This document shows, in pieces, positions 201-44,796 of a stretch of DNA of 47,155 bases. A program made the position numbers and the translations under genes. The notes beneath the pieces were generated by a model. It saw only the letters and a list, made by a program, of their open reading frames with translations. It was not told where the DNA came from and ran no database searches. Source of the DNA: Methylocucumis oryzae (GTDB taxonomy: Bacteria > Pseudomonadota > Gammaproteobacteria > Methylococcales > Methylomonadaceae). Position 1 is the stretch's first letter, and each line of letters begins with the position of its first letter. Where the stretch lies: positions 1 through 47,155 of the forward strand of contig NZ_LAJX01000059.1 of the NCBI RefSeq assembly GCF_000963695.1, read 5' to 3'.

Positions 201-238
201 CTGTTGATAATTTAGCTTAACAAAAACAACTATCGAGG

Positions 239-9038: not shown

Positions 9039-9081
9039 AATAGTTCCTAAGAATTCTATTATTATTTCATGTACAGGAGAA

Positions 9082-9728: not shown

Positions 9729-9747
9729 AGAATTAGGCTGGAGCCAT

Positions 9748-10413: not shown

Positions 10414-10475
10414 CACGCAAAAATGAAGGCGGCATAATGACTGACACAGAAATGCGTAGCTATGGAGGACACGCC

Positions 10476-10692: not shown

Positions 10693-10716
10693 TAAGCAAA
10701 CAAGAGGAATTAACCA

Positions 10717-11338: not shown

Positions 11339-11942
11339 CCGATCAACAACTCAATCAACTGGGCAGCACACTTTGGAAAATCGCCGATGACCTGCGCGGC
11401 GCATGAACGCCGACGACTTCCGCGACTATATGCTGTCGTTCCTGTTTTTGCGCTACCTGTCGGACAACTACGAAACCGCCGCGCAAAAAGAATTGGGGGC
11501 GGATTACCCACAACTGGCGGACGATGACAAACGTGCGCCGCTGTCGGTCTGGTATGCAGAAAATGCCGCTGATGCGGCGGAATTTGAAAAACAAATGCGC
11601 CGCAAAGTGCATTATGTGATTGAGCCGCAGCACCTTTGGAGCAGTATCGCCGAACTGGCCAGAACCCAGCATGACAACTTACTGCGCACCTTGGAACAAG
11701 GCTTCAAATACATTGAAAACCAAAGCTTTGAAAGCACCTTTCAAGGGCTGTTTTCGGAAATTAACCTCAATTCTGAAAAACTGGGCAAAAACTACCCCGA
11801 ACGCAACGCCAAGCTGTGCACCATCATCAGCAAAATCGCCCAAGGCATTGCCGGATTCTCAACCAATACCGATACACTAGGCGATGCCTACGAATACCTG
11901 ATCGGCCAGTTTGCCGCCGGTTCCGGCAAAAAAAGCCGGTGA
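11335..11942 (+). CDS. hsdM: Type I DNA methyltransferase, N-terminal part (frameshifted)
   Basis: The N-terminal helical domain of HsdM. The natural start is ATG 11335, reading MTDQQLNQLGSTLWKIADDL; this frame stops at 11403. Inserting one base near 11401 joins it to MNADDFRDYMLSFLFLRYLS, where the second frame takes over. That frame ends at 11942 because the A run at 11928-11934 is one base too long. The correct continuation is GSGKKAGEFYTPQQIS, in the next fragment. The complete gene would be 11335-12942, about 535 aa, the usual HsdM length. Confidence 0.88.
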
Positions 11943-12942
11943 GTTCTACACGCCGCAACAAATCTCCACGATTCTGTCCTCTATCGTCAGCCTCGACAGC
12001 CAAGAACCCGCCACCGGCAAAAAGACCAAACTCGACAAAGTGCTGGATTTTGCTTGCGGTTCGGGTTCGTTGCTTTTGAATGTGCGCAAACAGCTTGGAG
12101 CGCATGGCATCGGCAAAATTTACGGCCAAGAATCCAATATCACCACTTACAACTTAGCCCGCATGAACATGCTGCTGCATGGCGTGAAAGACTCAGAGTT
12201 TGAAATTCATCACGGCGATTCATTGGCTAACGATTGGGATATTCTCAAAGAAATGAATCCGGCTAAAAAACTGCAATTTGATGCGGTAGTCGCTAATCCA
12301 CCGTTTAGTTACCGCTGGGAGCCTAGCGAAGCCTTGGCCGAAGATTTTCGTTTTAAAAGCTATGGCCTAGCACCAAAATCAGCCGCCGATTTTGCCTTTC
12401 TGTTGCACGGTTTCCATTTTTTAAGCGACCAGGGCACGATGGCGATTATTTTGCCGCACGGGGTTTTATTTCGAGGGGGGAGCGAGGAGCGTATCCGCAC
12501 AAAGCTGCTAAAAGACGGGCATATCGACACCGTGATTGGCCTGCCTGCCAATCTGTTTTTCTCGACGGGCATCCCTGTTTGTATTCTGGTGTTGAAAAAA
12601 TGCAAAAAACCCGATGACGTGCTGTTTATCAACGCCAGCGAACAGTTTGAAAAAGGTAAGCGACAAAACCGGTTACTGCCAGAGCATATAACCAAGATTG
12701 TTGAGACCTATCAATTCCGCAACGAAGAAGCCCGCTATTCCCGCCGCGTTACGATGGCTGAAATCGAACAAAACGATTTCAACCTGAATATTTCGCGTTA
12801 TGTCAGTACCGCGCAAACAGAAGTCCAAATTGATTTACCAGCGGTGAATGCGGAGTTGTTAGCACTAGAACAAATCATTGCTGACGCTACCCAGCGGCAT
12901 AATCAATTTTTAATCGAGCTAGGTTTAGCAACGTTGCCTTAA
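11911..12942 (+). CDS. hsdM: Type I DNA methyltransferase, catalytic part
   Basis: The N6-adenine methyltransferase domain of HsdM. The SAM-binding motif I (DFACGSGSLLLNV), the catalytic NPPF (VVANPPFSYRW) and the substrate-side stretch ILPHGVLFRGG are all present. In this frame coding really begins near 11935 (AGEFYTPQQIS); the residues before are out of frame. With HsdS it would methylate the recognition site and so protect host DNA from HsdR. It is the last gene of the operon, separated from hsdR and hsdS by the nuclease and toxin-antitoxin genes. Its TAA stop overlaps the stop of the convergent polyketide synthase at 12939-12942. Confidence 0.92.
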   Translation: MPPVPAKKAGEFYTPQQISTILSSIVSLDSQEPATGKKTKLDKVLDFACGSGSLLLNVRKQLGAHGIGKIYGQESNITTYNLARMNMLLHGVKDSEFEIHHGDSLANDWDILKEMNPAKKLQFDAVVANPPFSYRWEPSEALAEDFRFKSYGLAPKSAADFAFLLHGFHFLSDQGTMAIILPHGVLFRGGSEERIRTKLLKDGHIDTVIGLPANLFFSTGIPVCILVLKKCKKPDDVLFINASEQFEKGKRQNRLLPEHITKIVETYQFRNEEARYSRRVTMAEIEQNDFNLNISRYVSTAQTEVQIDLPAVNAELLALEQIIADATQRHNQFLIELGLATLP

Positions 12943-12959
12943 AACCTGCTCAATAAGGC
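12936..12959. terminator. Possible weak bidirectional terminator between hsdM and the synthase
   Basis: A 6-bp stem (GCCTTA at 12936-12941, TAAGGC at 12954-12959) spans the overlapping stop codons of the convergent genes and is followed on the plus strand by TTTATCC. It is short and weak; the position is its main support. Confidence 0.3.
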
Positions 12960-15716
12960 TTTATCCAATACCTCCCCTACCCCTAACTCTCCATTAAAAA
13001 ACCGCCGCGCCAGTTCGGTATCTGGCTCAGCAGTCGGTGTGATGCCAGGATAGGTTTTAACGATATAGTCGGTTAATTGTTCAATCGTGCTGTAATCGAA
13101 AATTATCGCCGTGTTCATGTTGAGTTTTAAGACTTGATTGACCTGCTTGATAAAACCTACGCCTAAGATGGAATCTAAGCCGTAATCAGAAAACGGGATA
13201 TGGTTTTCTAAGCTGGTTAACGGTGCTTTGAGCGCTTCGCTGAGCGCTTGTTTTATGGCGCTTTGTATAGTTTGAGCAGCATTGTCTTGAGCCTGTACCG
13301 TGTTAGGTTTTATGGTCGTTGTTGCTACCGATTCAACGCAGGTGGCAACCGACTTTTGGGGAGTGCACGTCACCAAGCCATCGCTGGTTGCCGCGATGAT
13401 TTGTTGGCCTAAACGATGTGCCGATTCAGCCGGGAAATACACAGCGCGAAAACCTAGGCTGAGCAGTTGTTGCCGCCAAGCGTTAGGTGTTAAGCCTGGA
13501 CTGCCGCTCATGCGCAGCTCAGCATCTTGATATAACCACCAACCTTTTAATAAGCCAAAGGTTAAATGCGATAACCAGTTGGTATCGCTGATTTCGTTTA
13601 GCAATAACACACCACCTTGATTTAATAACGCTTTTGCATGGCTTAATACTGAGCGAATATCACCGGTGGCATGTAAGACATTAGCCGCAATAACCACATC
13701 GTAATGCCCTAATACAAAATCTTGCGTATCGGGTGCTTGTTCTATATTGAGCAAGGCGTAGCGCATAAACGGATGTTGACCGTAATGCTGTTGACCGTGG
13801 TGTAAAAAGGCTTTGGAAATATCGGTATACGCATATTGCTCAATATTATCGTAATAAGGCGATAAACGGTTTAACACCATCGCTGTCGTGCCACCGGTTC
13901 CGGCTCCGATTTCTAAAATACGCAGAGGACGATTAGAGTTAACCGCTAGCCGTTGTTGAATAAAGGCTTCCGCGCTATCCGCTAACACAGCATTAAAATA
14001 ATCCACGCGTTGATTTTTTTGATAAATACCAGCGACTTTTTCGGTTGAACCGTTAGGAAATAATACATCCGTTGCCGGTACTTGCCCGGTTAACACGGCA
14101 GGTAAGGCGGTTAAGCAATCATCTAATAACAACGCTAAGGCCCTTGTTTCTGCGTTATTGATGAAATAGGCTTTTTCTGTCTGCCAGGTTGGCCAGGCAT
14201 TAAGGCAGGCGTGTTGGCCTAATTCCGTCAAACGATAACCAGGTTGTTCGTAATGGATTAACCCGGCCTGGTCTAACATGGTCAGGGTTTGCTGCCACCA
14301 GCGTTGGTATAACGCATCACGGTGTAAACTGGCTGAATTAAGCACTTCAATACGCGCCAGCACTGCCCGCGCTAACAGGTTTAATAGTTTGGCTTGATCG
14401 GGATTATTCAATATTGTCGCCAGCTCTGGCTTTGGCTGTTGGGCGAGTGCTTGTACCGCTTCAGCAAAGCCAGTCTTGCTTTGGGTTAATCCATCAGCTA
14501 ATCGAATTTGTTGTTGCAACGGGACAGGCATCATCGCGCGCACGGGTTCTGAAGCATTTAAGCATAACAGTTGCCTGCACACGCCTTGGCGTAATAACGC
14601 GGTAAAACGTTCTAACGCAGTAAAACCTTGCTCATCGCTAAGCGAGTTAATCGCATAATCCAACGGCCATTCTTCTAACGACGATTGCCAAAAGCCCCAG
14701 TTAATCGCACCGACCGGTGGTGTCGCTGACGTCAACTGGGCGGCGGCATGAACAAAACTATCGGCAAAGGTAATACCGGCCGCATACGCCGATAACTGCG
14801 CGGCACCTGAAAACGAGAACGCTTGTCCCGATGAAAAATACACTAAAAAGTCTGACACTAATGGCGCAAACGTTTGATAGAAGTTAACCACGCCTTGCGT
14901 TTTAACGGTTAGTATTTGGTTAAATTGTGCTTCGCTAGTGTGCGCAATAGAGTTGTCAAAATCGAAAACAATGCCGGAAAACATCGCGCCGTTAATATGG
15001 GGATATTGTTGCTGTATCGTTTGTAAGGCCGTCGATAATGACGCTAAATCATTGGCATCGGCTTGTACATAGTATGGCGGTGTCGCAAATGCGTTAAGCT
15101 GTGCTTGCAGTTTGCTATCGCTTTCAGGTCTACGTCCTAGCCATATAACCTTGGCTTGATAACGTTGTTGCAATAAACGCGTGATGACTCGACCTACCGT
15201 GCCAGCACCGCCTAAAATAACGTAGACACCCTCTGTTATTAAGCCTGTTTCTAAAACATTTGTTGTATTCACTTCCCTGTAACCTGGATACCGGCAATCC
15301 ATTAATGCCAGGGATGGCATGTAGTAGAGCAACGCAGGAGCAGTTGCCGAACCGGTATGACGACTTGTTTCAGCAATACGGGAAAATAGCATAGGCGTAA
15401 TGGTTTGCGCATAACGACCACCGCCCCACAGTTTAACCACATCGCCTCTATCGGTGCTCGGCTCAGCGATGACTCGCCGCCATAACGCAGAATCGGTTAA
15501 ATCCTCAGCGCTTAAGTCAATATTACGCACATGAAAACGATGCTCGCTTTGCGCCAATGCATAAGCTAAGCCTGTAATACCGCCCGCCGTGGGATTAACC
15601 AACGTAGGGTGCGCTTTGCGCACCGTTTCGTAAGAATTAACAACGTGCCCGTCTAAACGATAATGGTCTAAGCTGAGTACATAACACGCGATTGCTGATG
15701 GTGTTGCAATGGCTTT
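12939..15716 (-). CDS. Synthase fragment 11: KR, C-methyltransferase, terminal ACP
   Basis: The last module. The KR has VILGGAGTVGRVI, YFSSGQAFSFSG and LSAYAAGITF; the last is the variant without the usual Asn that occurs in trans-AT ketoreductases ahead of methyltransferases. The methyltransferase has the classic PKS C-MT motifs ILEIGAGTGGTTAMVL, YTDISKAFL, YDVVIAANVLHAT and GGVLLLNEI. It would place an alpha-methyl branch. The terminal ACP is FSDYGLDSILGVG (serine at 13170-13172). It ends about 40 residues later in FFNGELGVGEVLDKALL, a tail like those ending other trans-AT proteins. There is no thioesterase or other release domain. The stop overlaps that of hsdM, so nothing more of the line can follow here. 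Confidence 0.89.
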   Translation of the reverse strand, partial: KAIATPSAIACYVLSLDHYRLDGHVVNSYETVRKAHPTLVNPTAGGITGLAYALAQSEHRFHVRNIDLSAEDLTDSALWRRVIAEPSTDRGDVVKLWGGGRYAQTITPMLFSRIAETSRHTGSATAPALLYYMPSLALMDCRYPGYREVNTTNVLETGLITEGVYVILGGAGTVGRVITRLLQQRYQAKVIWLGRRPESDSKLQAQLNAFATPPYYVQADANDLASLSTALQTIQQQYPHINGAMFSGIVFDFDNSIAHTSEAQFNQILTVKTQGVVNFYQTFAPLVSDFLVYFSSGQAFSFSGAAQLSAYAAGITFADSFVHAAAQLTSATPPVGAINWGFWQSSLEEWPLDYAINSLSDEQGFTALERFTALLRQGVCRQLLCLNASEPVRAMMPVPLQQQIRLADGLTQSKTGFAEAVQALAQQPKPELATILNNPDQAKLLNLLARAVLARIEVLNSASLHRDALYQRWWQQTLTMLDQAGLIHYEQPGYRLTELGQHACLNAWPTWQTEKAYFINNAETRALALLLDDCLTALPAVLTGQVPATDVLFPNGSTEKVAGIYQKNQRVDYFNAVLADSAEAFIQQRLAVNSNRPLRILEIGAGTGGTTAMVLNRLSPYYDNIEQYAYTDISKAFLHHGQQHYGQHPFMRYALLNIEQAPDTQDFVLGHYDVVIAANVLHATGDIRSVLSHAKALLNQGGVLLLNEISDTNWLSHLTFGLLKGWWLYQDAELRMSGSPGLTPNAWRQQLLSLGFRAVYFPAESAHRLGQQIIAATSDGLVTCTPQKSVATCVESVATTTIKPNTVQAQDNAAQTIQSAIKQALSEALKAPLTSLENHIPFSDYGLDSILGVGFIKQVNQVLKLNMNTAIIFDYSTIEQLTDYIVKTYPGITPTAEPDTELARRFFNGELGVGEVLDKALLSRF

Positions 15717-18700
15717 GAAACGCCTTTAACAGCCTTAACAACTGTATTTCATAACCTTGAGTCGCTGCGGCATAACACTGAGTTAACGATACAAGCGTAG
15801 TATCTAGCGCGATAAAATACACCGTAGCAAAACCTTGGGTTTGGCTTAATGCTTGGGTAAACGCTAAAGGCTGGTCAACGTCACAATAGATTTCATCAGC
15901 GTGTAGCGCGGGTTGTTCACCAAAACCCAGCACCAACTTAACCGGTTGCACCGTCATGCCTAAGCGCTGATAGCATAAATAAAGCGCATCTGCGTAATGT
16001 CTGGCACTGGCCGGATAAACCAACAGTAATGATGACGGTATCGCGAGATTAGTTTGGTCTAGCGCGGGTAACCGTTGCCAACCGGGCAAGTAGCTCACTT
16101 TATCCCAATCTGTCTCTACGTTACTCTCGTTCCCACGCTCCGCGTGGGAATGCAGACCTAACGGCTTTATAGTTTGAGACCCAGAGCTTGGCAGCTTCCC
16201 CCAATAACGCTCTTTAGCAAACGGATAAACCGGTACACCATAGCCTAAGCTTTTAGGTTTAACAGCATAGAGGGCATCCCAATCTATGCGGTTACCCGCC
16301 ACCCACAACCCGGCTAACGAGGCCAAAACTTTGTTCGCCGTTAATCGAGCGAGATACTCTTGCCCTTCTTCGGTATCCGTCACTAATTGCGTGTGCTTAT
16401 CGACTACACCGGTCCAGACATGGCGTGAAACTTGACCCATTAAAAAATCATTGACTGCGTTAATCGCTGCACTAGGCGTATCCGCCAACACCGCTAGTCT
16501 ATGCGACATCGCTTCACGTCCGGTTTGTAAACGATAACTTAAGCGTGTTAAATCTAGGGTTGGGTTTTGTTGTAAATACGCGATTAGACTTTCTGCATAA
16601 GCCTGTAAGCGTGGCGCTTGTTTGGCTGACAACACCAGTAACACAGGCTCCACGCTATTCTGAACTGCGGTATCGTTATTAAATTCTTGCAACACCAGAT
16701 GCGCATTCGTACCACTAAAGCCAAACGAATTAATGACGGCGAATCTAGGGCTATCCGTTGGCTCAGGCCAATCTTGTAGCGTTGTGTTGATATAAAACGG
16801 CGTATCCTCTAAGGTAATATGCTCATTAAGCTGGCTAAAATGCAGCGTCGGCGGTAATTGTTTATGGGTTAAGGCAAGTACCAATTTAGTGACACCGGCA
16901 ATACCTGCCGCCAACAACGAATGACCGATATTGCTTTTCACGGTGCTTAATGCGCAATAATGCCGCTCAGCGGTTAAGTCCTTAAACGACTCGGTTAACG
17001 CTTCGATTTCAATAGGATCGCCTAGCGCAGTCCCGGTGCCATGCGCCTCAACCAGTTGTATCTGCGCTGGATTAATATGAAAACGCTGATACACCTGTTG
17101 TTGTAAACGAGTTTGCGCAATGGCATTCGGTGCAGTCATGCCATTAGAACGGCCATCATGATTCACCGCCCAACCTTTTATCACAGCATAGACCGCATCA
17201 CCATCAGCGAGCGCATCGCTTAAGCGTTTCAATAACACTGCGCCGACGCCTTCACCGGGGACAAAGCCATCGGCACGTTGGTCGAAACTAAAACAACGGC
17301 CTTGCGCGGAAAACACATTAGCCGCTGTGCCCATCGCGTAAAATCTTGGGTCTAAAATAATGCTGACACCACCGGCTAAGGCTAAATCACAGTTACCCAA
17401 TATTAAATTGTCACAAGCCGTTGCAATGGCCACTAACGACGAAGAACACGCCGTATCTAATGCCATGCTAGGGCCTTGTAAATTGAGTAAATAAGAAATA
17501 CGCGAGGCTAAAAATGCCGTTGCGCCACCGGTCAACTGCTGCACACCATTGGCATTATCCGCCGTTAATCCCGCGTAATTATTTTCGGCACACCCTACGA
17601 ACACACCGCAGCGGCTACCTGATAAGCTAGACGGCACAATGCCAGCATCTTCTAAACAATGCCAACAGGTTTGTAAAAACAAGCGTTGCTGCGGGTCCAT
17701 TAACTCAGCTTCGCGCGGCGAGATATTAAAGAAAAATGGGTCAAAACAATCTATGTCGTCTAACGCGCCCATCCACTTACAATTACTCTTGCCCGGCGTC
17801 GTCCCGCTTGGGTCGTAATAATCCGAAACATTCCAGCGATTAGCCGGTATTTCCGTCACGCAATCCAGCCCTGCGGCGATATTACGCCAGAATTGTTCTA
17901 CATTAGCCGCTTTAGGATACTGTCCGGCAATGCCTATGATGGCAATCGCATCTAGCGCATTATCAGACTGGATTTTACTGGCTGGCTTAGGCTGAGCGTG
18001 TGGTTCTGGCGCTGGCTCAACGGTATTAGCTTTTACTTGCTTGCTCTGTTGTGGCTCACATGTCCCCAAACTTTCACAAACAGCAGCCGCTGGTAGCGGC
18101 TTCAGTTTTGTGACTAACGTGCTTAAATGCTGAGCAAATAGATTAAGGCTAGGATATTTATAAATCTCGGTCGCTTTTAAGCTTAAGCCATATTCGCTAT
18201 TAATCTTAGTCACCCACATCACGCCGCTAATCGAATTTAAGCCTAAATCATTAAATTGGCTGTCATCATCCATTTGCGTAGGGCTTAATTGCAATTCATC
18301 GGCTAAGGTTTGCCGCAACCAATCGCGTATAGGTTTTAGCTGTTTTTCCACACTAGGCAAGACCTGAGTGGTGCTTGGCAGGGATGTTGGCAGCATGGAT
18401 ACTGCCATCAAGCCCTCAGGGATGAGTTCACGGCGACCCCAACAAGCATTACCCAGGTCTGCCTTTAAGTTATTTTCAACCCCAGGCAAGACCTGGGTGG
18501 TGCTTGGCGGGGATGTTGGCAGCAGGGATGCTGCCATCAAGCCCTCAGGGATGAGTTCACGGCGACCCCGACAAGCATCGCCCAGGTCTGCCTTAACCAA
18601 CGGCTTCACCGCCACAATCCCAACATGCTCAAACCCCGCCAACGGCGTGTTTTTAACCTCAGCAAAAAGCTCCGAACCTTCATAGCCCACGCGCTCTATG

Positions 18701-18981
18701 CTAAAACCCGCCGCCAAACATTCCCGGCTTAAAATCTCAGTATCTAACGGATTAACCGATTTAGGCCCTTGCCGGGCTTGTTCGGTATTTAACAAGCTGT
18801 GTACATCGGCAATAAATCCCGGCCATGCTTCGCCTTGCGCTTTGCGTTGTAGATACACTGGCGCATTCACATGCCAATAACCCACATAAGGCGTATCAGT
18901 AATGATAAACACCTTACCGCCTGGTTTTAGCCAATGATACATTTTGCTTAAAGTTAACTGTATCGCGTCAGGCGTTAAAAA
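15637..18981 (-). CDS. Synthase fragment 10: MT end, ACP, KS7, KR start
   Basis: Completes the first methyltransferase (FLTPDAIQLTLSKMYHWLKP, GYWHVNAPVYLQ). A linker follows that consists largely of two copies of a 43-residue repeat (RRELIPEGLMA, STTQVLP). The ACP has NDLGLNSISG; the conserved Asp before the serine is Asn. KS7 is complete (DTACSSSL, VEAHGTGTALGDP, NIGHSLLAAG). After VPVYPFAKERYW comes a hairpin-coded stretch (HSHAERGNES), then the start of a ketoreductase (VSYLPGWQRL, LLLVYPASARHYAD). The frame shifts near 15718; the correct continuation is LLKAF-KAIATPSAIACYV. Confidence 0.87.
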   Translation of the reverse strand, partial: FLTPDAIQLTLSKMYHWLKPGGKVFIITDTPYVGYWHVNAPVYLQRKAQGEAWPGFIADVHSLLNTEQARQGPKSVNPLDTEILSRECLAAGFSIERVGYEGSELFAEVKNTPLAGFEHVGIVAVKPLVKADLGDACRGRRELIPEGLMAASLLPTSPPSTTQVLPGVENNLKADLGNACWGRRELIPEGLMAVSMLPTSLPSTTQVLPSVEKQLKPIRDWLRQTLADELQLSPTQMDDDSQFNDLGLNSISGVMWVTKINSEYGLSLKATEIYKYPSLNLFAQHLSTLVTKLKPLPAAAVCESLGTCEPQQSKQVKANTVEPAPEPHAQPKPASKIQSDNALDAIAIIGIAGQYPKAANVEQFWRNIAAGLDCVTEIPANRWNVSDYYDPSGTTPGKSNCKWMGALDDIDCFDPFFFNISPREAELMDPQQRLFLQTCWHCLEDAGIVPSSLSGSRCGVFVGCAENNYAGLTADNANGVQQLTGGATAFLASRISYLLNLQGPSMALDTACSSSLVAIATACDNLILGNCDLALAGGVSIILDPRFYAMGTAANVFSAQGRCFSFDQRADGFVPGEGVGAVLLKRLSDALADGDAVYAVIKGWAVNHDGRSNGMTAPNAIAQTRLQQQVYQRFHINPAQIQLVEAHGTGTALGDPIEIEALTESFKDLTAERHYCALSTVKSNIGHSLLAAGIAGVTKLVLALTHKQLPPTLHFSQLNEHITLEDTPFYINTTLQDWPEPTDSPRFAVINSFGFSGTNAHLVLQEFNNDTAVQNSVEPVLLVLSAKQAPRLQAYAESLIAYLQQNPTLDLTRLSYRLQTGREAMSHRLAVLADTPSAAINAVNDFLMGQVSRHVWTGVVDKHTQLVTDTEEGQEYLARLTANKVLASLAGLWVAGNRIDWDALYAVKPKSLGYGVPVYPFAKERYWGKLPSSGSQTIKPLGLHSHAERGNESNVETDWDKVSYLPGWQRLPALDQTNLAIPSSLLLVYPASARHYADALYLCYQRLGMTVQPVKLVLGFGEQPALHADEIYCDVDQPLAFTQALSQTQGFATVYFIALDTTLVSLTQCYAAATQGYEIQLLRLLKAFQSHCNTISNRVLCTQLRPLSFRRARC
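16128..16153. repeat. Palindromic repeat inside the synthase linker
   Basis: TTCCCACGC and GCGTGGGAA form a 9-bp stem with a 3-nt loop at 16130-16150. It is translated in frame as HSHAERGNES between KS7 and the last KR. The same hairpin recurs at 28504-28524. Confidence 0.8.
18361..18596. repeat. Tandem pair of repeat elements translated in the synthase
   Basis: Two copies with a period of 129 bp (units start at 18361 and 18490), each coding 43 residues including RRELIPEGLMA. Each unit has imperfect terminal inverted repeats (AGACCTGGG ends) and a hairpin core related to the element at 11-120. They lie between the first methyltransferase and its ACP and keep the frame. Confidence 0.85.
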
Positions 18982-26773: not shown

Positions 26774-26774
26774 A

Positions 26775-26993
26775 ACGCGCCCGTGTTAATGTCAACCCGT
26801 TAAATAAATGCGCGACCGAAACAACATAGCCTTGGCAAAATAGCTCGGCTAATTGCGCTAATTGGTCTAAATAAACTAAAGCCTCGCTGTCATCGGCTGA
26901 AGCCAACTGCTCAGCATAAGCTTGTAAGCCTGGTTGTGCGCTAAACCTAGGCGAGACCACGGCTTGATAAACCTGAACTAGCCTCTTATCTGA
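26775..26993 (-). CDS. Synthase fragment 8: post-KS4 linker
   Basis: About 73 codons of the flanking linker after KS4 (PGLQAYAEQLASADDSE, VVSVAHLFNGLTLTRAR). They are bounded on both sides by homopolymer shifts (26995-26998 and 26772-26775). With three A's instead of four at the second site the reading is RARLPGYPFAKEPYW, which joins fragment 9. An open frame running on to 26598 beyond the shift is not real coding. Confidence 0.72.
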
Positions 26994-32138: not shown

Positions 32139-33657
32139 GTAGGACTTCAGGCGGCGCCTCAATCAAAAGCTCGCTGCAATCATTGAGTAAATAACGCGTT
32201 AACGCGTTGATATTAGTTTGTGAGAAAAACACGGCGGGGCTAAAGCTAATGGCGTAATGCTTAGCAATAGCCCTAGCCAATTCAGCTAACGTAATGGAAT
32301 CAAAACCAAAATCGATAAAGTTGCTGTTAATATTGATTCGGTCTAGCGGTAGTTTTAAGACCGTGTGAACTAAATGTTTTAACTCAGACTGTACGCGTTG
32401 TTCTGGATGCAATGAGGTAGTTAATTTGGTTTCTACGGTAGCCACGGCAGCAATAACCGACGGCGCGGGTCTATTAACCGATTCTGTAATAGTATGCGCC
32501 CAACCATAACGTTGTTGTTCAAACGGGTATCCGGGTAAATTTAACCGTTGTACCGGTTGGTTATGATACAAAGCCTGCCAATCAACATCGTTACCCGCTA
32601 GCCAGGTTGCTAACAATTGGTGTTGATAACCCATGCCAACCTTATTGGTTTCGAACTCGCTTTGGGTAACACTGTTTTGGTACGCAAAGCGTACCCTACC
32701 ATGCTCTGATTCTTGGGTAATGGGTTCGTAGGGTACGCTTTGCGTACCACAAGAAGCCAAATAATCACTTAGCTGTACGGCTAATTCAGGTAGCGACGCA
32801 GAAACAAACCCTAAGCGATACGTCAATGCTTCCCGTCCTGTCTGCAAGGTATACGCTAAATTAAGCAAACTGTGTTTAGGCTGGCTTTGCCAAGTAGGTT
32901 CTTTAATCGTTTGCCATAAGCGTTGTACGACTAAACGCAAGCGCTCAGGCTGTTCAGCCGATAACACGATACATACGGGTTCACTCGCTGGTGTTGTCTC
33001 AGGTTTAGCAACAGCGTCTAAATACTCAGTAAGCACCGCATGAGCATTAGCACCACCGGCACCGAATGACGATAAACACGCCACGCGTGGCTGCTCTATA
33101 CCGTCAAGCACCGGCCTAACCCAAGGCGTTAACTGTTGCGGTAAATAAAATGGCGTCGCAGTAAAATTAATATTCGGATTGACCTCTGCGCTATGTAAAG
33201 TCGGGGCTAGTTGTCCGTGTTTTAATTGCAACAGAATTTTACTTAAGCCAGCCATACCTGCGGCCGCTTCACAATGCCCAATATTGCTTTTCACCGAACC
33301 TAACGCACATTGCTCTGGTTGCTTACCCATCGCTTGAAAGGCTTTCATCAAGCCTGTGACTTCAACCGGATCGCCTAATGCCGTCCCGGTACCATGCGCT
33401 TCGATATAACTAACCGCGCGCGCATCTATCTTGGCTTGCGTTAACGCCTCAGCAACAAGCTCAGCTTGAGCATTCGGATTCGGCACGGTAAAGCCGTGGG
33501 TTCTGCCATCGTGATTAATGGTCGTCGCCTTAATCACCGCATAAATGGCGTCACCGTCGCGTTGAGCATGGCTTAACGGTTTTAGCATCACAGCGCCTAC
33601 CCCCTCACCCGGCACAAAACCATCGCCACCCGCGCCAAAACTACGGCAACGACCATC
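32122..33657 (-). CDS. Synthase fragment 5: second half of KS2, ACP
   Basis: Continues KS2 with GFVPGEGVGAVMLKPL, IEAHGTGTALGDP and NIGHCEAAAG, so KS2 has the full Cys-His-His triad. The usual post-KS linker follows (AYTLQTGREALTYR). Next is a stretch coded by a large inverted repeat (32678-32749), then LPGYPFEQQRYGW and an ACP with DFGFDSITLAEL (serine near 32298). There is no reductive domain between KS2 and its ACP, so a beta-keto group would be left unless trans enzymes act. The end of the frame (PEVLQKNCC) is caused by a homopolymer at 32132-32138; fragment 6 continues with YKKTVVDTKPTSYD. Confidence 0.86.
   Translation of the reverse strand, partial: DGRCRSFGAGGDGFVPGEGVGAVMLKPLSHAQRDGDAIYAVIKATTINHDGRTHGFTVPNPNAQAELVAEALTQAKIDARAVSYIEAHGTGTALGDPVEVTGLMKAFQAMGKQPEQCALGSVKSNIGHCEAAAGMAGLSKILLQLKHGQLAPTLHSAEVNPNINFTATPFYLPQQLTPWVRPVLDGIEQPRVACLSSFGAGGANAHAVLTEYLDAVAKPETTPASEPVCIVLSAEQPERLRLVVQRLWQTIKEPTWQSQPKHSLLNLAYTLQTGREALTYRLGFVSASLPELAVQLSDYLASCGTQSVPYEPITQESEHGRVRFAYQNSVTQSEFETNKVGMGYQHQLLATWLAGNDVDWQALYHNQPVQRLNLPGYPFEQQRYGWAHTITESVNRPAPSVIAAVATVETKLTTSLHPEQRVQSELKHLVHTVLKLPLDRININSNFIDFGFDSITLAELARAIAKHYAISFSPAVFFSQTNINALTRYLLNDCSELLIEAPPEVLQKNCC
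32678..32749. repeat. Perfect 22-bp inverted repeat in the post-KS2 linker
   Basis: A 22-nt sequence at 32678-32699 (TGGTACGCAAAGCG...) is repeated exactly as its complement at 32728-32749, with a 28-nt loop. It is translated in frame within the linker between KS2 and its ACP. Confidence 0.88.
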
Positions 33658-36239
33658 GCTAGCGACATGGTGAGCTGAGCTAGCAAGCGATATTTATTCG
33701 GATGCAACGATAAATTCACTCCACCAACTAGGGCCGCTAAACACTCGCCCCGGCGTAAACTCTGCACCGCTTGATGCAATGCTGTTAATGATGAAGAACA
33801 CAAGGTATCAACAGCCAAACTAGGCCCGTGCAAATCTAGCGTATATGACACCCGATTAGCGATTGAACCATAAACCGACCCTAGCGATTGCTCACCGCTA
33901 AACAATTGATATTCGCCATACATGACGCCGACAAACACGCCAACTTTACCGGCAAAGACACGTTGTAAACTGGCTTTGTTATAACCGGCATCTTCTACCG
34001 TATGCCAAGCGGTTTGTAAAAACAAACGTTGTTGCGGGTCCATGCTCTCCGCTTCGCGTGGCGAAATCTTAAAAAACAGCGCATCAAAACTCTCAATATC
34101 CGATAAAAAACCACCAAAACGGCATAAATCAGCATAGCGCGAGTCATTGTTATCCCAGCGCTGTTTAGGTACTTCGGTAATACAATCAGCCCCTTGTTTA
34201 AGCTGTTGCCAAAATGCCTCTAAATCTTGCGCACCTGGATAACAACCGCTGACGCCAATAATGGCAATATCATCGGCTAAATAGAGCGCGTCTTGTGCCT
34301 GGCTTTGACCATCAGGTTGAGTCTCTAAAACGGCTTGTTGGGGTGTCGCTAAATTTAATAACTGCGCTAAACCCAAGCCATGCTGCTGGTAAAAATACTG
34401 GGCTAAGTCTTGTAAGCAGTGATATTCAAAAAACAACGTCTTAGATAACTCACCTAAATCTCGCTCTAAGCGCGTGGTTAATTGTTTAATCAACAATGAC
34501 GTTAATCCGTATTGGTCAAAGCCTGCGTTTAAGCGTAGCTGAGACAACGGTATTTCCGAAACTTCTGAGAAAACGGTTTTCAGATAGTCTTGTACTTGAT
34601 TTAAGGTTACAACATGTGTTTCAGAGACAGGAATAGCAACCGGTTCCGGCTTAGCGCTAGCCGCTTCAGGCCAATAAGCCGTCGTGTTATCGAAAGGATA
34701 ACCCGGTAACGCCACGCGTTTACGACCAGCTTCTGTAAGACCTTGCCAATCAAACTTAGCGCCCTTAACCCAAGCCTCCGCCAGTTCGGATAATGTTAAA
34801 CGCGCCGGATTTTTTAGCTCGTTAACAGTATCTAGCGCCTGTCCGATAAACAGCTCAGCATTAGAGTCACGCCGTATTAACCAAGCCGATAGTTTCTGTT
34901 GTAACTCGCTATGGCTACTAGCAATTACGGCCAAACGCTGCGTCATAGCCACCCGTCCTACCTGGAACGTATAGGCTATATCAGCTAAATTAGGCAAGCC
35001 CGTCGTCATCGCTTTGGTTAAAAATTGCTGGAATCGGGTAACAAGTTGCATAAGTTGTGGCTCCGTAGCCGCCGATAACACGATTAAGTGCGCTGCTTCA
35101 GCGCGATTAGCCAACGTTGCAGGCGTTGTGCGATATTCCTCTAATACGGCATGAGCGCTAGAACCGGTTGCACCAAAGGCATTCACTAAGGCTCGTCTAG
35201 GCTGGTCCGATGACCAAGGCATTAGCGCATCGGCCAAACGTAACCGGCTGTGTTCTAGTTGTAATAACGGATTAAGCGGTTGCTGACTTAAGCTTGGAAA
35301 AATATGACCGGAATGAAATTGCGCGAGTACTTTAGCAATTTGTGACATGGCCGAAGCCGATTCTAAATGACCGATATTGGCTTTAACACTGCCGAAATAA
35401 ACCGGCTTAACGTCTTCATCCTGTTTAAACACTTGTTTTAATGCCGCTATTTCCGCCGCATCGGCCAGGCTAGCCCCTGGCGCGGCAGCTTCGATATAAC
35501 TAATCGACGCAGCCTCTATACCCGCAGCCGCGAAGGTTTTAGCAATCGCTTGCGCTTGTTTTTCCGCATTAGGCGCACCATAGCGTAGCGAATGCCCGCC
35601 ATGACTAATACCGGTGTTTAATACCGAGGCATGTATCGTGTCACCTTGCTCTTCGGCCTTCAGCAAAGGCTTTAACACTAATACGCCTACTCCTTCACCG
35701 GCCACCCAACCATCGGCGTGTTGGCTAAACGGTAAACAGCGGTTGGAATGACTGAGTAAGTCTAACGATTGTAATAAGGTTTGATGATATGGATGGCTGA
35801 GCAAATTAACCCCAGCGACAATCGCCGCGCCACACTCACCGTTTCGCAGTGCGGTGACAGCATGATGCAACGCGGTTAACGCAGACGAACATGAGGTATC
35901 GATGCTAAGACTAGGCCCATTAAAATCAAAAAAATACGACAAGCGGTTGGCTAACGATGAGCGCACCGAGGTCGGCGGCATAGTCAAACCTTGTTGCCAT
36001 TGCCCGGTGCCATAATGCTGATAATCATCCCACATCGCCCCAATTAACACGCCTACTGTACCGGCTACTCGATTAAGCTCAGCAGCGGTATAGCCTGCAT
36101 TGTCTAAGGCCGCCCAAACCTGTTGCAATAATAGACGTTCTTGCGGGTCTAGGGTTTTCGCTTCTTTAGGTGTGATATTAAATAACGCCGCATCGAAACT
36201 CGCTATATCCGTTAAAAAACCGCCAGTGTTGCGAAAACG
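33597..36239 (-). CDS. Synthase fragment 4: KS1 (His-deficient), ACP, first half of KS2
   Basis: KS1 keeps the nucleophile (DTSCSSAL, near 35890) and the second histidine (NIGHLESAS). The usual EAHGTGT is EAAAPGA (near 35486), so the first catalytic histidine is alanine. Ketosynthases of this kind (KS0) pass chains on without elongating them in other trans-AT lines. A linker with AYTFQVGR and LPGYPFDN leads to an ACP with FDQYGLTSLL (serine near 34499). KS2 starts at IAIIGVSGCYPGA and has DTLCSSSL (Cys near 33800). The frame is lost near 33657, after LLAQLTM; the expected SDGRCRSFG continues in fragment 5 after one added base. Confidence 0.86.
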   Translation of the reverse strand, partial: RFRNTGGFLTDIASFDAALFNITPKEAKTLDPQERLLLQQVWAALDNAGYTAAELNRVAGTVGVLIGAMWDDYQHYGTGQWQQGLTMPPTSVRSSLANRLSYFFDFNGPSLSIDTSCSSALTALHHAVTALRNGECGAAIVAGVNLLSHPYHQTLLQSLDLLSHSNRCLPFSQHADGWVAGEGVGVLVLKPLLKAEEQGDTIHASVLNTGISHGGHSLRYGAPNAEKQAQAIAKTFAAAGIEAASISYIEAAAPGASLADAAEIAALKQVFKQDEDVKPVYFGSVKANIGHLESASAMSQIAKVLAQFHSGHIFPSLSQQPLNPLLQLEHSRLRLADALMPWSSDQPRRALVNAFGATGSSAHAVLEEYRTTPATLANRAEAAHLIVLSAATEPQLMQLVTRFQQFLTKAMTTGLPNLADIAYTFQVGRVAMTQRLAVIASSHSELQQKLSAWLIRRDSNAELFIGQALDTVNELKNPARLTLSELAEAWVKGAKFDWQGLTEAGRKRVALPGYPFDNTTAYWPEAASAKPEPVAIPVSETHVVTLNQVQDYLKTVFSEVSEIPLSQLRLNAGFDQYGLTSLLIKQLTTRLERDLGELSKTLFFEYHCLQDLAQYFYQQHGLGLAQLLNLATPQQAVLETQPDGQSQAQDALYLADDIAIIGVSGCYPGAQDLEAFWQQLKQGADCITEVPKQRWDNNDSRYADLCRFGGFLSDIESFDALFFKISPREAESMDPQQRLFLQTAWHTVEDAGYNKASLQRVFAGKVGVFVGVMYGEYQLFSGEQSLGSVYGSIANRVSYTLDLHGPSLAVDTLCSSSLTALHQAVQSLRRGECLAALVGGVNLSLHPNKYRLLAQLTMSLAMVVAVVLARVAMVLCRVRG

Positions 36240-38859
36240 TTTTTGTTACATCGGCTGCAATTGGTCGCCGGTAATCGCTTTCGCTATTAAATTCAATCGC
36301 CGTAAATGCCGTTTTACCGTGTTGTAATAACTGAGCAAACTCGGCTAAGTCTTCAGCACCCGGATAAACACCGCTGATGCCAATAATCCCTATTGCTTGC
36401 TGCTGTGATTTCGATAGCGCACGACGTTGTAAAAACGGCCAAAACGCTGGTAACGGCGTATTCACCGCGCCTATCACGAAACTATGCAATAACTCATCAT
36501 CAGGAGTTAACGTAAAATCGGCGCGTATTTTATCGAATAACAGACCACCGATAGGACACAAACCTAAGCCAAACTCAGCTTGCCGTTCTAGCAACAATTG
36601 TCCTATCGCACCAGCTTCTAACAACGCAGCAAATACTGGCTCACGTTTGTTGGCAAAGATAAATAACACTGCTTTCGCCTGACTGGCATGTTTACGATTA
36701 AACGGCGTGTAACAGCTTTTTATCGGCTGGGATAGCTGGGAACAAACCGGTATTAAACCATGCGCCGCTAAATCATAACGATAAAGCCCCGATGCCAGCT
36801 CGCTAACACCTTGTTCTTGCGCGTACAGATAAAACTGCAAGCTATTGGCTGCGGTAAGTTTAGTAAATAAATACGCATCAAGATTCACCGACTGCGGCCT
36901 TAGCAAACTCAGCAAACCGCTTAATGCCGATAGCGGTATAGTCTGGTCTAAATAATCCCGTTTAGCCGCGCGCGCACCATACCATTCAAGCGCTACTGGA
37001 CTATCGTCTAGCGCCAGCGCCGTACCGGTACACGGTCTTAACTGCCTATGCTGCTCATGTAACTGGTCGCGTTGTTGCTGGCTAGGAAAACTAACCGCGT
37101 GTCCAGCCGCACCAATCACTGATTCAATCCCCGCTAAACTCACTTGACCGAACGCGGTTAAACTCACATCCAGCACCGGTGCAGGCTGCGCCCAATCGGC
37201 TAAGCCACCGATTAAACAATGCATAAATTGCTGGCTAGGCTCTAATTGAAATGCCTCGGCAATGACCGCAAAGCCAGACACCGCGACTGGCAATAATGCT
37301 AGCTCTAGCTCAGCTTGGCGACTTTGTAGCATTTGTGCCAGGTAACCGGCTTCTAATACCGATAACACTTGGCCTAAGCCTTGATAAATCGGTGTAATCG
37401 CGGCCAACTCTGCGATTAAAAACAAGCCGAATTGAGCGTCTGCAGCTAAATCTACGTTAGCAAACGCATGTTCTAGCCCATGCTGAGTGCTGATTAAATG
37501 AAGCTGATGCATCACCGGATGGTAATAATAAATCCCCGCCGGTATGTCGTGTACGGCATCGTCTTTAAGCCAAACATAGACTTGCACTGGATTTAAACCA
37601 CCTGCCGACGAATACAAATACTTAGGTTTACCTTGAACGTCGCGTTGTTTTAATAACGACAATAACTGCGCGAGCTTAGCTTGAGATAACGCGGATGGTT
37701 TAGAGGCTAACGCTGGACGACGATAAAATGCGGGTTCAAACTCAAATGTCGGTAAATTAATTATGCTTGGCTTAACCATCGTCAAGCCATAAGGTGTTGT
37801 TTTTTCTTGTTGAATAGTCGTTGTTAGCGCTGCCGACAATGCCGCTACCGTAGGCGTCGCTAAAATGGCGTCAAGCGCAATCGTTACGTTAAATTGCTGA
37901 CGGATACGTTCAACTAGGCGCACCAACGTAAACGACGTCGCACCGGCATCAAATAAATCATCGTGCTCAGTCAAGCCCGGAATCGAGAACACCTCAGCCG
38001 CTAACGCTAACAGTGCTTGCTCAAGGTTTATTGCTTGTTCAACCGAGTGTTCAGCCAGATAACGACTCAGCGCGGCTAACGTAGGCTGTTGTAAAACCAC
38101 CTCAATCGGTATAGCAATCCCAGATGCCGCCCGAATCTGCTCAATTAAACGCACTAGCGTAAACGACGTCGCGCCAGCGTCGAATAAATCATCATCGGGT
38201 GATAGGCTTAGATTAAGCACGTCTTGCGCTAGGCGTAACAGCTGAGCTATCGCTAAGCTAGTGGATTTAAGCTCAGGCTTAATCGCACCTACTGGGATGG
38301 ACTGAGGTATGGGCCAAGGTAACGCGTCTCTATCGGCTTTACCATGCGCCGTCACCGGCAACGCTGCCATGAACACCACATGATTAGGCACCATGTATTC
38401 AGGTAAAACGGCTTTAACATAGTCTCTAACCGCCTTCGCCGTTAAATCAGTATCAACACACTCCAAATAAGCGACTAATTTAGCATCGTTTAATGCTTGA
38501 TCTTTAACCAGTACGACAGCGTCATTAATCTGCTCATGTTGTCTTAAACACGCCTCGATTTCGCCTAACTCGATTCTAAACCCGCGTACTTTGACTTGAA
38601 AATCTAACCGGCCTAAATACTCGATATTGCCATCGGGTAACCAACACGCTTGGTCACCGGTTTTATACAGCTTAATTTTAGACCACGGTACTTGAATAAA
38701 TTTTTCTGCCGTTAATTCAGGCCGGTTTAAATACCCTCTCGCTAAACCTACGCCGCCTATATGCAGCTCACCGGCTTGACCAGCAGCAACAGGATTTAAT
38801 TCAGCATCTAAAATCCATAGTTCAATATTGGCTATCGGCTTACCTATCGGGACTTTTTT
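36178..38859 (-). CDS. Synthase fragment 3: A-domain end, two PCPs, two oxidase domains, KS1 start
   Basis: Coding resumes just after the stop with KKVPIGKPIAN and runs through A6-A10 (GELHIGGVGLARGYL, YKTGDQACW, HGKADRDALP). Two peptidyl-carrier domains follow with the same core, DLFDAGATSFTLVRL, the phosphopantetheine serine lying in TSF. Then come two tandem SagB/nitroreductase-like flavin domains, about 37730-36460. The first has FYRRPAL, YSSAGGLNPVQVYVWL and GIYYYHP; the second has LYRYDL, LLEAGAIGQ and GLGLCPIGG. FMN oxidases of this type turn thiazolines or oxazolines into azoles in other NRPS, but no heterocyclisation domain is present here. KS1 begins at IGIIGISGVYPGAED. An extra base in the A run (plus 36240-36244) breaks the frame; the true continuation is TKRFRNTGGFLTD. 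Confidence 0.85.
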   Translation of the reverse strand, partial: KKVPIGKPIANIELWILDAELNPVAAGQAGELHIGGVGLARGYLNRPELTAEKFIQVPWSKIKLYKTGDQACWLPDGNIEYLGRLDFQVKVRGFRIELGEIEACLRQHEQINDAVVLVKDQALNDAKLVAYLECVDTDLTAKAVRDYVKAVLPEYMVPNHVVFMAALPVTAHGKADRDALPWPIPQSIPVGAIKPELKSTSLAIAQLLRLAQDVLNLSLSPDDDLFDAGATSFTLVRLIEQIRAASGIAIPIEVVLQQPTLAALSRYLAEHSVEQAINLEQALLALAAEVFSIPGLTEHDDLFDAGATSFTLVRLVERIRQQFNVTIALDAILATPTVAALSAALTTTIQQEKTTPYGLTMVKPSIINLPTFEFEPAFYRRPALASKPSALSQAKLAQLLSLLKQRDVQGKPKYLYSSAGGLNPVQVYVWLKDDAVHDIPAGIYYYHPVMHQLHLISTQHGLEHAFANVDLAADAQFGLFLIAELAAITPIYQGLGQVLSVLEAGYLAQMLQSRQAELELALLPVAVSGFAVIAEAFQLEPSQQFMHCLIGGLADWAQPAPVLDVSLTAFGQVSLAGIESVIGAAGHAVSFPSQQQRDQLHEQHRQLRPCTGTALALDDSPVALEWYGARAAKRDYLDQTIPLSALSGLLSLLRPQSVNLDAYLFTKLTAANSLQFYLYAQEQGVSELASGLYRYDLAAHGLIPVCSQLSQPIKSCYTPFNRKHASQAKAVLFIFANKREPVFAALLEAGAIGQLLLERQAEFGLGLCPIGGLLFDKIRADFTLTPDDELLHSFVIGAVNTPLPAFWPFLQRRALSKSQQQAIGIIGISGVYPGAEDLAEFAQLLQHGKTAFTAIEFNSESDYRRPIAADVTKTFSQHWRFFNGYSEFRCGVI

Positions 38860-39081
38860 TTATCGGGGCGTTTGTTGGCACGGCCAATAACTGACATCGA
38901 CCGCCGCTTCAGTCGGGCCGTATAAATTATGTAGCTCAGCGGGTAGAGTCTCTAAGCATTCACTCATTAATTCATAGCTTAACGCCTCACCACTGACAAA
39001 AATCCGCGTTAAACTCGTACAACCGGATACACCGTCTTGCTTAAGAAAAAATCTAAGCATAGACGGCACAAAATGACACAC
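38860..39081 (-). CDS. Synthase fragment 2: adenylation domain, middle
   Basis: The middle of the adenylation domain with the specificity pocket (VCHFVPSML, IFVSGEAL) and motif A5 (NLYGPTEAAVDVSYW). Reading the ten pocket positions by analogy with GrsA and EntF across fragments 1-3 gives D, V, W, H, F, S, L, V, D, K. This is the EntF serine code, so L-serine is the predicted substrate. The fragment ends at TAA 38860-38862, which is in the same frame as fragment 3. The stop sits between a C run and an A run of eight, so compensating homopolymer errors would remove it (expected TPDKK...VPIGKPIAN). Confidence 0.82.
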   Translation of the reverse strand: MCHFVPSMLRFFLKQDGVSGCTSLTRIFVSGEALSYELMSECLETLPAELHNLYGPTEAAVDVSYWPCQQTPR

Positions 39082-39892
39082 CGTTACTTTTTTGTGTCTG
39101 AATTAATTCAACTAAATAAGCGTTATCCTTATGCCCTTCCGGCTTAGCAACCAGCAAACACGCGCCAGACAACCACGGTAAAAAAAATTCCCAAACCGAG
39201 ACATCAAAGGTATACGGCGTTTTTTGCAAAATAGTATCGTCAGCATTAATCCGATATTGCTCGCGCATCCACAACAACCGGTTAACAATCGCTTGATGCG
39301 AAATCATGCAGCCTTTAGGCAAGCCAGTAGAGCCTGACGTGTAAATCACATAAGCCAAATGCTCTGGATTAAGCTTAATAGCAGGGTTAGTCTCTGGTTC
39401 TTGTTCAAGATAAAACCTTTCGCTATCTAAACAAAACAATGTCTTACCTTCGGCAAGTTGAGCTACACCCGGTAATAACGCTTGCTGCGTTAAAATAACC
39501 TCAACACCGGCATCGGCCAGTAACAATGCCATACGCTGCTCTGGATAATCGACAGACAACGGCAAATAAGCGCCGCCTGCTTTTAAAATCGCCAATAACG
39601 CCACCGGCAATTCCAGCGAGCGCTGCATGACGACTCCCACCAACGTATCCGGCTTAACCCCTAAACCGATTAAATAATGCGCACATTGATTAGCTTTACG
39701 ATTTAACTCAGCATAACTCAGCGTTTGTCCGTTATAGCTCAACGCCACCGCATCAGGCGTTAACAACGCTTGATGCTCAATTAACTCATGCAAACAATGG
39801 CTTATCTGAGTTGGCTTTGTTTGATAAAGACTTTCCGCTGAATCCGGGTTAGCAAAAAACGAATGCGCACGCTGTTGGCTTAATACGTTCAT
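39053..39892 (-). CDS. Synthase fragment 1: adenylation domain, N-terminal half
   Basis: The loading end of the assembly line. Adenylation core motifs are clear: LSYAELNRKANQ (A1), LKAGGAYLPLSVDYP (A2), YTSGSTGLPKG (A3) and FDVSVWEFFLPWLSG (A4). I prefer ATG 39892 (MNVLSQQ) to the TTG at 39982, since the extra residues match nothing familiar; neither has a strong ribosome site. The frame is lost where a run of six A's (minus strand) codes TQK; with five A's it reads QKVTVCHFVPSML and joins the next fragment. No condensation domain precedes it, so this is a starter module. The A4 residues D, V, W open the specificity code discussed under the next fragment. Confidence 0.88.
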   Translation of the reverse strand: MNVLSQQRAHSFFANPDSAESLYQTKPTQISHCLHELIEHQALLTPDAVALSYNGQTLSYAELNRKANQCAHYLIGLGVKPDTLVGVVMQRSLELPVALLAILKAGGAYLPLSVDYPEQRMALLLADAGVEVILTQQALLPGVAQLAEGKTLFCLDSERFYLEQEPETNPAIKLNPEHLAYVIYTSGSTGLPKGCMISHQAIVNRLLWMREQYRINADDTILQKTPYTFDVSVWEFFLPWLSGACLLVAKPEGHKDNAYLVELIQTQKSNGVSFCAVYA

Positions 39893-44731: not shown

Positions 44732-44742
44732 AGCCCAAGTAT

Positions 44743-44774: not shown

Positions 44775-44796
44775 AAGCAAAACCTGGGCAGCGTAA

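What the first reader, a model, noticed from the sequence alone, without database searches (positions are those of the whole stretch)
12939..39892. A roughly 9000-residue NRPS / trans-AT PKS line hidden by frame breaks
Eleven adjacent minus-strand frames join into one synthase with seven ketosynthases. Each joint falls inside a domain or linker, and the next frame picks up the same domain at the expected residue. The domain order, with a serine-type A domain, paired carriers, paired oxidases and seven KS modules, matches no pathway I recognise. Annotated gene by gene it would look like unrelated fragments and would probably be missed or misassigned.
Basis: partly seen in the sequence, partly recalled or inferred. 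Interest (0 to 1): 0.85.

Follow-up and report, generated by a model that had tools for sequence, protein, structure and literature searches.

The report
Giant methanotroph polyketide synthase, error-broken
A methane-eating bacterium carries one very large enzyme gene of the trans-AT polyketide synthase kind, which looks chopped into eleven pieces almost certainly because this genome's sequence is full of small errors, so it is a sound but fairly ordinary example of a known enzyme class whose product is unknown.

Summary
In detail: eleven minus-strand frames (39994-12939), parted by nine frame changes and one in-frame stop, encode A-PCP-PCP-Ox and seven KS modules without any AT. The breaks are best read as sequence errors: rpoB and rpoC of the same genome are split too, core genes show 13 breaks in about 30 kb against 10 in 27 kb here, break intervals are enriched in homopolymers, and in congeneric methanotrophs single open frames cross 8 of the 10 joints. 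It is a trans-AT NRPS/PKS protein with a serine-type loading module, a two-lobed nitroreductase-type Ox, a conserved non-elongating KS1 (catalytic His lost), six KS with intact motifs and no thioesterase. Elsewhere the genome encodes a free-standing AT beside an ECH, and an HMG-CoA synthase-like protein. The closest relatives found (41-70% identity by segment) are in two congeners, one titled Methylovulum sp.; no product could be assigned. "Paired oxidases" is more likely one two-lobed Ox, "seven KS" means at most six extensions, and the line continues in another gene. New member of a known kind. Most novel open point: oxidation of a seryl starter without a heterocyclisation domain. Frames were not mended or joined.

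The parts
39089..39778 (-). A domain, N-terminal part (frame 39056-39994); first Met at 39892
   Evidence: PF00501 2-256/384, 3.1e-60; core FDVSVWE
38887..39096 (-). A domain, middle part (frame 38863-39102)
   Evidence: PF00501 254-330, 1.8e-11; HFVPSML, IFVSGEA, LYGPTEAAVDVS
38860..38862 (-). in-frame stop inside the A domain; an 8-base homopolymer touches it
   Evidence: open in G010 and G015 relatives
38338..38853 (-). A domain, C-terminal part
   Evidence: PF00501 341-384 and PF13193, 4.1e-10
38056..38244 (-). PCP1 (DAGATSF)
   Evidence: PF00550, two stretches in this frame; motif at residue 227
37825..38022 (-). PCP2 (DAGATSF), limits approximate
   Evidence: PF00550 second stretch; motif at residue 304
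36469..37635 (-). Ox: SagB-type lobe 37231-37635 and nitroreductase lobe 36469-36972
   Evidence: TIGR03605 87.4 bits, cut-off 78.4; PF00881 8e-16, 2 stretches; BmdC oxidase 5.9e-19 for the first lobe only
34878..36396 (-). KS1, non-elongating by motif (first catalytic His replaced: IEAAAPGA); frame change inside
   Evidence: same residues in G010 L056 and G015 L066
34395..34589 (-). ACP1
   Evidence: PF00550 1.8e-10
32755..34274 (-). KS2 with linker; frame change inside
   Evidence: Cys/His/His present
32188..32385 (-). ACP2
   Evidence: PF00550 8.9e-16
30585..32063 (-). KS3 with RhiE-like linker
   Evidence: motifs
29081..29600 (-). KR3, split over two frames
   Evidence: PF08659 1-99 and 104-179
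28598..28798 (-). ACP3
   Evidence: PF00550 9e-17
26990..28456 (-). KS4 with RhiE-like linker
   Evidence: motifs
26601..27029 (-). 143-aa linker frame between KS4 and DH4
   Evidence: position only; no Pfam or tblastn match; by reading it resembles the post-KS linker of module 3
25801..26641 (-). DH4, degenerate (Gly of HxxxGxxxxP is Gln; catalytic Asp position is Asn by reading), end approximate
   Evidence: PF21089; residues read
25586..25792 (-). ACP4, limits approximate
   Evidence: PF00550, one of two stretches; DSI motif read
24011..25483 (-). KS5 with linker, end approximate
   Evidence: PF00109; motifs
22919..23689 (-). DH5, motifs intact, start approximate
   Evidence: PF21089/PF14765; HYVLGQPVLP
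21824..22384 (-). KR5
   Evidence: PF08659 2.4e-49
21350..21547 (-). ACP5
   Evidence: PF00550
19679..21220 (-). KS6 with linker
18974..19204 (-). MT6, first part; continues in frame 15640-19098 by homology
   Evidence: PF13649 1.3e-07; runs through in one frame in G015 L130
18344..18594 (-). two tandem in-frame copies (offset 129 bases) of a dispersed repeat, in the MT6-ACP6 linker
18124..18324 (-). ACP6 with Trp six residues after Ser (NSISGVMW)
   Evidence: PF00550 9.8e-14; same Trp in G015
16435..17949 (-). KS7 with linker
14685..15230 (-). KR7
   Evidence: PF08659 1.8e-26
13605..13916 (-). MT7
   Evidence: PF08242 9.4e-19
13062..13259 (-). ACP7
   Evidence: PF00550 1.2e-12
12939..13061 (-). 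C-terminal tail and stop; end of the protein, no thioesterase
   Evidence: G015 homologue ends near the matching residue, then a KS gene follows

Best explanation
A single giant gene (about 27 kb, about 9000 codons) of a gammaproteobacterial methanotroph encodes the first protein of a trans-AT NRPS/PKS assembly line. The eleven frames are an artefact of small sequence errors in a low-accuracy assembly. Likely working: the A domain loads serine on tandem PCPs (inferred from the specificity residues); a two-lobed flavin Ox dehydrogenates the bound starter (inferred); KS1, without its first catalytic His, only passes it on (motif shown, role inferred); KS2 extends and leaves a beta-keto group; module 3 extends and reduces; module 4 has a degenerate DH and may act with module 3 as a bimodule or be silent; module 5 makes a double bond; module 6 methylates and its ACP carries the Trp thought to flag beta-branching (rule recalled); module 7 reduces and C-methylates. 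Malonyl units would come from a free-standing AT. The chain is then handed by a C-terminal docking tail to another PKS protein, possibly the one on contig C348 (inferred). Product unknown.
For: Domains. No AT on the line or contig; a free AT on C146 (360 aa, TIGR00128 329 bits, cut-off 260.9) followed by an ECH (NF005498 352 bits, cut-off 250). HMG-CoA synthase-like protein on C65. Breaks as errors: rpoB split in two frames here but in one frame in G019 (1368 aa) and G016 (1401 aa); rpoC in three frames; 13 breaks in 22 core proteins (10,080 residues by my sum, about 30 kb; EF-Tu counted twice) against nine shifts and one stop in 27 kb. Homopolymers: runs of 6 or more in 4 of 9 shift intervals (0.56 expected, P 0.001), of 5 or more in 5 of 9 (1.55, P 0.008); in core-gene intervals 5 of 12 (1.6, P 0.013) and 10 of 12 (3.7, P 0.0004). 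Joints crossed by one open frame in congeners: 8 of 10 (26 for part of MT6). KS1 His loss identical in G010 and G015. PMC8692599 (passages seen) reports the same fragmentation of PKS/NRPS genes by indels in a nanopore metagenome.
Against: Joints 26981-27029 and 26601-26785 are not bridged by any relative held, and the 143-aa frame there has no homologue. Four of nine shift intervals hold no run of 5 or more. The in-frame stop is not a simple single indel. No reads were available and the sequencing platform is unknown. The rpoB comparison was made on four congeners: whole in two, an 1105-aa frame holding the full domain in G010, no match in G015. The substrate residues, Ox chemistry, beta-branching and handover rest on motif reading and recall.
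Confidence: 0.9

Rival explanations
1. The gene is a decayed pseudogene and the breaks are real mutations.
For: Nine shifts and a stop in one gene; four of nine intervals lack a homopolymer of 5 or more; the continuing PKS gene is not next to it.
Against: Essential rpoB and rpoC are broken too, and core genes at a like rate; catalytic motifs other than those of KS1 and DH4 are kept where I looked; the KS1 loss is shared by two congeners with open frames, so it is not decay.
Confidence: 0.05
2. Several separate proteins (a split assembly line) whose genes end and begin at the joints.
For: Trans-AT lines are often made of several proteins (recalled). One joint (32125-32162) lies between ACP2 and KS3, where proteins can be split, and two joints at 26.6-27.0 kb are untested.
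Against: Six of ten joints fall inside domains: A twice, KS1, KS2, KR3, MT6. Relatives are open across 8 of 10, the ACP2-KS3 joint included.
Confidence: 0.03
3. The contig is chimeric at about 12939-12942, so the restriction-modification genes beside the PKS end are not its true neighbours.
For: The PKS stop (12939-12941) and the convergent hsdM stop (12940-12942) overlap; in G015 the homologue is followed at once by another PKS gene.
Against: hsdM and the PKS both reach about their expected ends; convergent overlapping stops occur; the C348 candidate partner has a fic-like stretch upstream by reading.
Confidence: 0.2

Closest known systems
Homologous synthases in congeners G010 (its contig C400 agrees in length and match with SCST01000783.1, Methylovulum sp. 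FW215_bin.51) and G015
   Same: Ser-type A, PCP, Ox, non-elongating KS1, KS2 in the same order, G010 also KS3-KR; G015 also KS5-DH-KR, KS6-MT, KS7 and, on another contig, KR-MT-ACP and the end of the protein
   Different: 41-70% identity over the best segments; G015 shows one PCP motif, not two; their contigs are short, so the whole order is inferred from pieces; G015 has a PfaD-type ER and another PKS gene just upstream, the window does not
Trans-AT PKS lines in general (swinholide: PMC5772238; lasonolide: PMC9600693; passages seen)
   Same: no cis AT, non-elongating KS and tandem carriers (swinholide), aberrant or inactive DH domains (both)
   Different: this line starts with Ser-type A-PCP-PCP-Ox; no product assigned
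Large PKS genes of Methylobacter methanoversatilis, 18.5 and 26 kbp (PMC12810054, passages seen)
   Same: a methanotroph of the same broad group (recalled) and similar gene size
   Different: sequences not compared here
Solanimycin synthetase SolG (PMC10204066, passages seen)
   Same: the NCBIfam SolG model is the best match of one A piece and the second best of another (the middle piece was not scanned there); SolG is reported to activate serine
   Different: SolG is a C-containing peptide module; both scores lie far below that model's cut-off
BmdC oxidase of bacillamide synthesis
   Same: only solved relative found by sequence, for the first Ox lobe
   Different: BmdC acts on a heterocyclised substrate (recalled); no Cy/C domain was found in this line

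Membership tests
trans-AT PKS | modular KS-ACP line without AT in any module | tested here: met
   no PF00698 match in the pieces; the genome's three matches lie on other contigs
trans-AT PKS | free-standing AT in the genome | tested here: met
   C146 360-aa AT next to an ECH; it matches the fabD model, and that it serves this line is inferred
trans-AT PKS | RhiE-like linker after the KS | tested here: met
   PF22336 above its cut-off after 7 of 7 KS
trans-AT PKS | KS falls in trans-AT substrate clades (transATor) | not testable with these tools
   no reference KS set on hand
NRPS loading module | A-PCP without an upstream C domain | tested here: met
   the A match begins about 38 residues after the first Met; no PF00668 in the pieces at E 1e-5 / 1e-4
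thiazole/oxazole-forming NRPS (Cy-A-PCP-Ox) | heterocyclisation (Cy) domain | tested here: not met
   no condensation/Cy match on the line at E 1e-5 / 1e-4
HCS beta-branching | flagged ACP plus HCS and ECH in the genome | tested here: inconclusive
   Trp at Ser+6 in ACP6 and in G015 (rule recalled, paper search found none); HCS-like protein (225 bits, cut-off 360) and ECH present but on other contigs
pyran synthase | aberrant HxxxGxxxxP and catalytic Asp in a DH-like domain | tested here: inconclusive
   DH4 has Gln for Gly and Asn for Asp; PMC5772238 (passages) links loss of the Gly to ring formation as a possibility; no phylogeny made
pseudogene | breaks in excess of the genome's background | tested here: not met
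   rates alike (0.43 per kb in 22 core proteins, 0.33-0.37 here)

The most novel reading that the evidence does not exclude
The line starts with a conserved Ser-A-PCP-(PCP)-Ox-KS0 cassette with no heterocyclisation domain, seen (in pieces) in three methanotroph species, so the Ox would oxidise a free seryl (or already modified) thioester and give a starter unit not known from trans-AT lines.
Probability: 0.3. Interest if true: 0.5.

Novelty: new member of a known kind. Interest (0 to 1): 0.32.

Why it matters
It adds an uncharacterised trans-AT line with an unusual loading cassette to the methanotrophs, a group whose polyketides are little explored (PMC12810054, passages, notes abundant unexplored clusters in Methylobacter). 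It also shows, with a control on essential genes, that a broken megasynthase in this genome is best read as sequence error, so gene-by-gene counts of polyketide genes in such assemblies need care.

Tried and rejected
Pseudogene decay and split genes were tested and set aside (see rivals). AlphaFold of the Ox region alone gave mean pLDDT 34.9 and was not used. The line was not compared with MIBiG or transATor (not on hand). Nine paper searches were made. 'trans-AT, polyketide, methanotroph' (7 papers), 'Methylovulum, biosynthetic gene cluster' (10), at least three of 'trans-AT, oxidase domain, serine, nonelongating' (4) and 'Methylobacter, trans-AT' (9) listed no paper whose title or start of abstract describes this line. 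The others were for solanimycin, pyran synthase motifs, repeats in PKS linkers, the beta-branch Trp rule (none found) and long-read indels. Of six papers I saw passages only: PMC12810054, PMC9600693, PMC5772238, PMC12338139, PMC10204066, PMC8692599; PMC12338139 held nothing on this line. PMC6127864 is not held. No Rfam family over its gathering score and no tRNA in the window.

Full report
What is there. The window is the whole contig C345 (47,155 bases) of a 4.58 Mb, 389-contig genome that is 88.6% complete. On its minus strand eleven stop-to-stop frames follow each other from 39994 to 12939, with nine overlaps in different frames and one in-frame stop at 38860-38862. Pfam places domains on 10 of the 11 pieces. 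In order: A (three frames), PCP, PCP, Ox, KS1, ACP, KS2, ACP, KS3, KR, ACP, KS4, degenerate DH, ACP, KS5, DH, KR, ACP, KS6, MT, ACP, KS7, KR, MT, ACP, end. No AT, condensation or thioesterase domain was matched.

Whose genome. The genome holds a methane/ammonia monooxygenase A gene (PF02461, 428 bits). The congener G010 has a 4243-base contig C400 that agrees in length and match with SCST01000783.1, titled Methylovulum sp. FW215_bin.51. So it is most likely a gammaproteobacterial methanotroph; no tool gave its genus name.

Why the frames are broken. The test is whether other genes of this genome are broken too. rpoB is split into frames of 1182 and 211 aa. Of four congeners asked, it lies in one frame in G019 (1368 aa) and G016 (1401 aa); G010 has the full domain in a frame of 1105 aa, and G015 had no match. 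rpoC lies in three frames here. I compared the 54 ORFs of at least 200 aa from an 80-kb stretch of G019 with 12 contigs of this genome (C179 whole; the others whole or their first 20 kb). Twenty-four had matches above 50% identity. I dropped two with coverage under 0.4. The other 22 (10,080 residues by my sum, EF-Tu counted twice) show 13 frame changes in 9 proteins, about 0.43 per kb, against nine in 27 kb (0.33 per kb, 0.37 with the stop) in the synthase. The window's hsdM is also broken (11403-11939 / 11902-12942). Homopolymers of six or more lie in 4 of 9 synthase intervals (0.56 expected, P 0.001) and of five or more in 5 of 9 (1.55 expected, P 0.008); in the 12 localised core-gene intervals the figures are 5 (1.6 expected, P 0.013) and 10 (3.7 expected, P 0.0004). 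One of the 13 core breaks was not localised. Four of nine synthase intervals hold no run of five or more, so homopolymers do not explain each break. PMC8692599 (passages seen) describes indel fragmentation of whole megasynthase genes in a nanopore metagenome. The platform behind this genome is not known to me.

Relatives at the joints. Single open frames of congeners run across the A-domain break and the stop (G010 L057, G015 L063), across KS1 and KS2 (G010 L056, G015 L066), across 32125-32162 and KR3 (G010 L056), across MT6 (G015 L130) and across 15640-15725 (G015 L133): 8 of 10 joints (for part of MT6). The two joints at 26981-27029 and 26601-26785 are not covered, and the 143-aa frame between them has no match at 1e-4 in the contigs compared; by reading, it resembles the post-KS linker of module 3. 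Identity of the best segments is 41-70% (lowest for the G015 Ox). Core proteins against another congener, G019, show 55-96%; this is not the same pair of genomes, so I only note that the synthases are related lines and need not make the same product.

What the domains say. The A-domain residues read from two separate pieces are D-V-W and H-F-S-L-V-D, the serine code as I recall it; G010 and G015 show the same letters at the same motifs. In NCBIfam the SolG model is the best match for one A piece and the second best for another, far below its cut-off; the middle piece was not scanned there. SolG is reported to take serine (PMC10204066, passages). The Ox has a SagB-type lobe over its cut-off and a second nitroreductase lobe; I read this as one pseudo-dimeric Ox (inference; the AlphaFold model was too poor to help). 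KS1 has IEAAAPGA in place of the HGTGT motif, identical in G010 and G015, so it is most likely non-elongating and this is not decay. KS2-KS7 keep Cys, His, His. DH4 has Gln for Gly and Asn for Asp. PMC5772238 suggests that DH domains lacking this Gly may act in ring formation (passages); I did not test that. ACP6 has a Trp six residues after the Ser, shared with G015; that this flags beta-branching is recalled. The genome has an HMG-CoA synthase-like protein (TIGR01835 225 bits, under the cut-off of 360), an ECH over its cut-off next to a free AT, and the G015 cluster has a PfaD-family ER whose 71-72% homologue lies, itself broken, on C35 here.

Where the line goes on. G015's homologue ends at about the matching residue and its stop overlaps the start of a KS gene. 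In this window the next gene is hsdM on the other strand. In the 630 kb of this genome pooled, one place on C348 encodes an N-terminal stretch like that of the G015 follow-on gene (61% over 31 residues, E 3e-5; the next best has E 0.026). I take C348 as a likely next protein, as an inference; about six sevenths of the genome was not in that pool.

Verdict. A real, large, uncharacterised trans-AT NRPS/PKS, broken by sequence errors; a new member of a known kind. PMC12810054 already reports PKS genes of 18.5 and 26 kbp in a Methylobacter (passages). The interesting open point is the Ser-A-PCP-PCP-Ox-KS0 start without a heterocyclisation domain. In G010 and G015 this start is spread over two contigs each, so its linkage there is inferred. 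Of the 60 relatives searched with this piece, only G010 and G015 have listed matches that reach deep into the Ox; at most 15 candidates per genome were scored and the list was cut.

Noticed in passing
18344-18594, 15303-15351, 16126-16162, 28501-28527: Dispersed repeats sit inside frames of the synthase, among them two tandem copies 129 bases apart in the MT6-ACP6 linker that are absent from the G015 homologue. In the 630 kb of this genome pooled (rich in PKS contigs by choice) three repeat families have 15-30, 10 and 17 places; the copies found inside frames of 300 aa or more all lie on PKS-bearing contigs.
   Followed up: partly
1-133: The contig begins in a dispersed repeat of about 130 bases with copies of about 88-98% identity on many contigs, which may explain the contig end.
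   Followed up: partly
4200-12942 (+): A type I restriction-modification island: hsdR, two YhcG/DUF1016 nucleases, a specificity subunit, a PIN protein and an hsdM split by a frame change. Its hsdM stop overlaps the synthase stop.
   Followed up: partly
40476-46473 (-): Low-GC (0.33-0.40) stretch with four frames of 717, 224, 239 and 558 aa without a Pfam match at E 0.1, next to a DUF1175 gene at 46443-47129.
   Followed up: no
G000 contigs C366, C212, C79, C44, C35, C382, C348, C115, C129 (loci L083-L087, L093-L102): 53 KS match segments genome-wide, several KS split over more than one segment: more PKS lines in one methanotroph, one with an AT in the same frame (C129).
   Followed up: no
L102 (C35) 124-12814: A PKS with a KS 65% identical over 391 residues to part of the window's KS2, condensation domains at its end and a homologue of the PfaD-type ER beside it, with a PD-(D/E)XK transposase gene between; possibly part of the same pathway.
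   Followed up: partly
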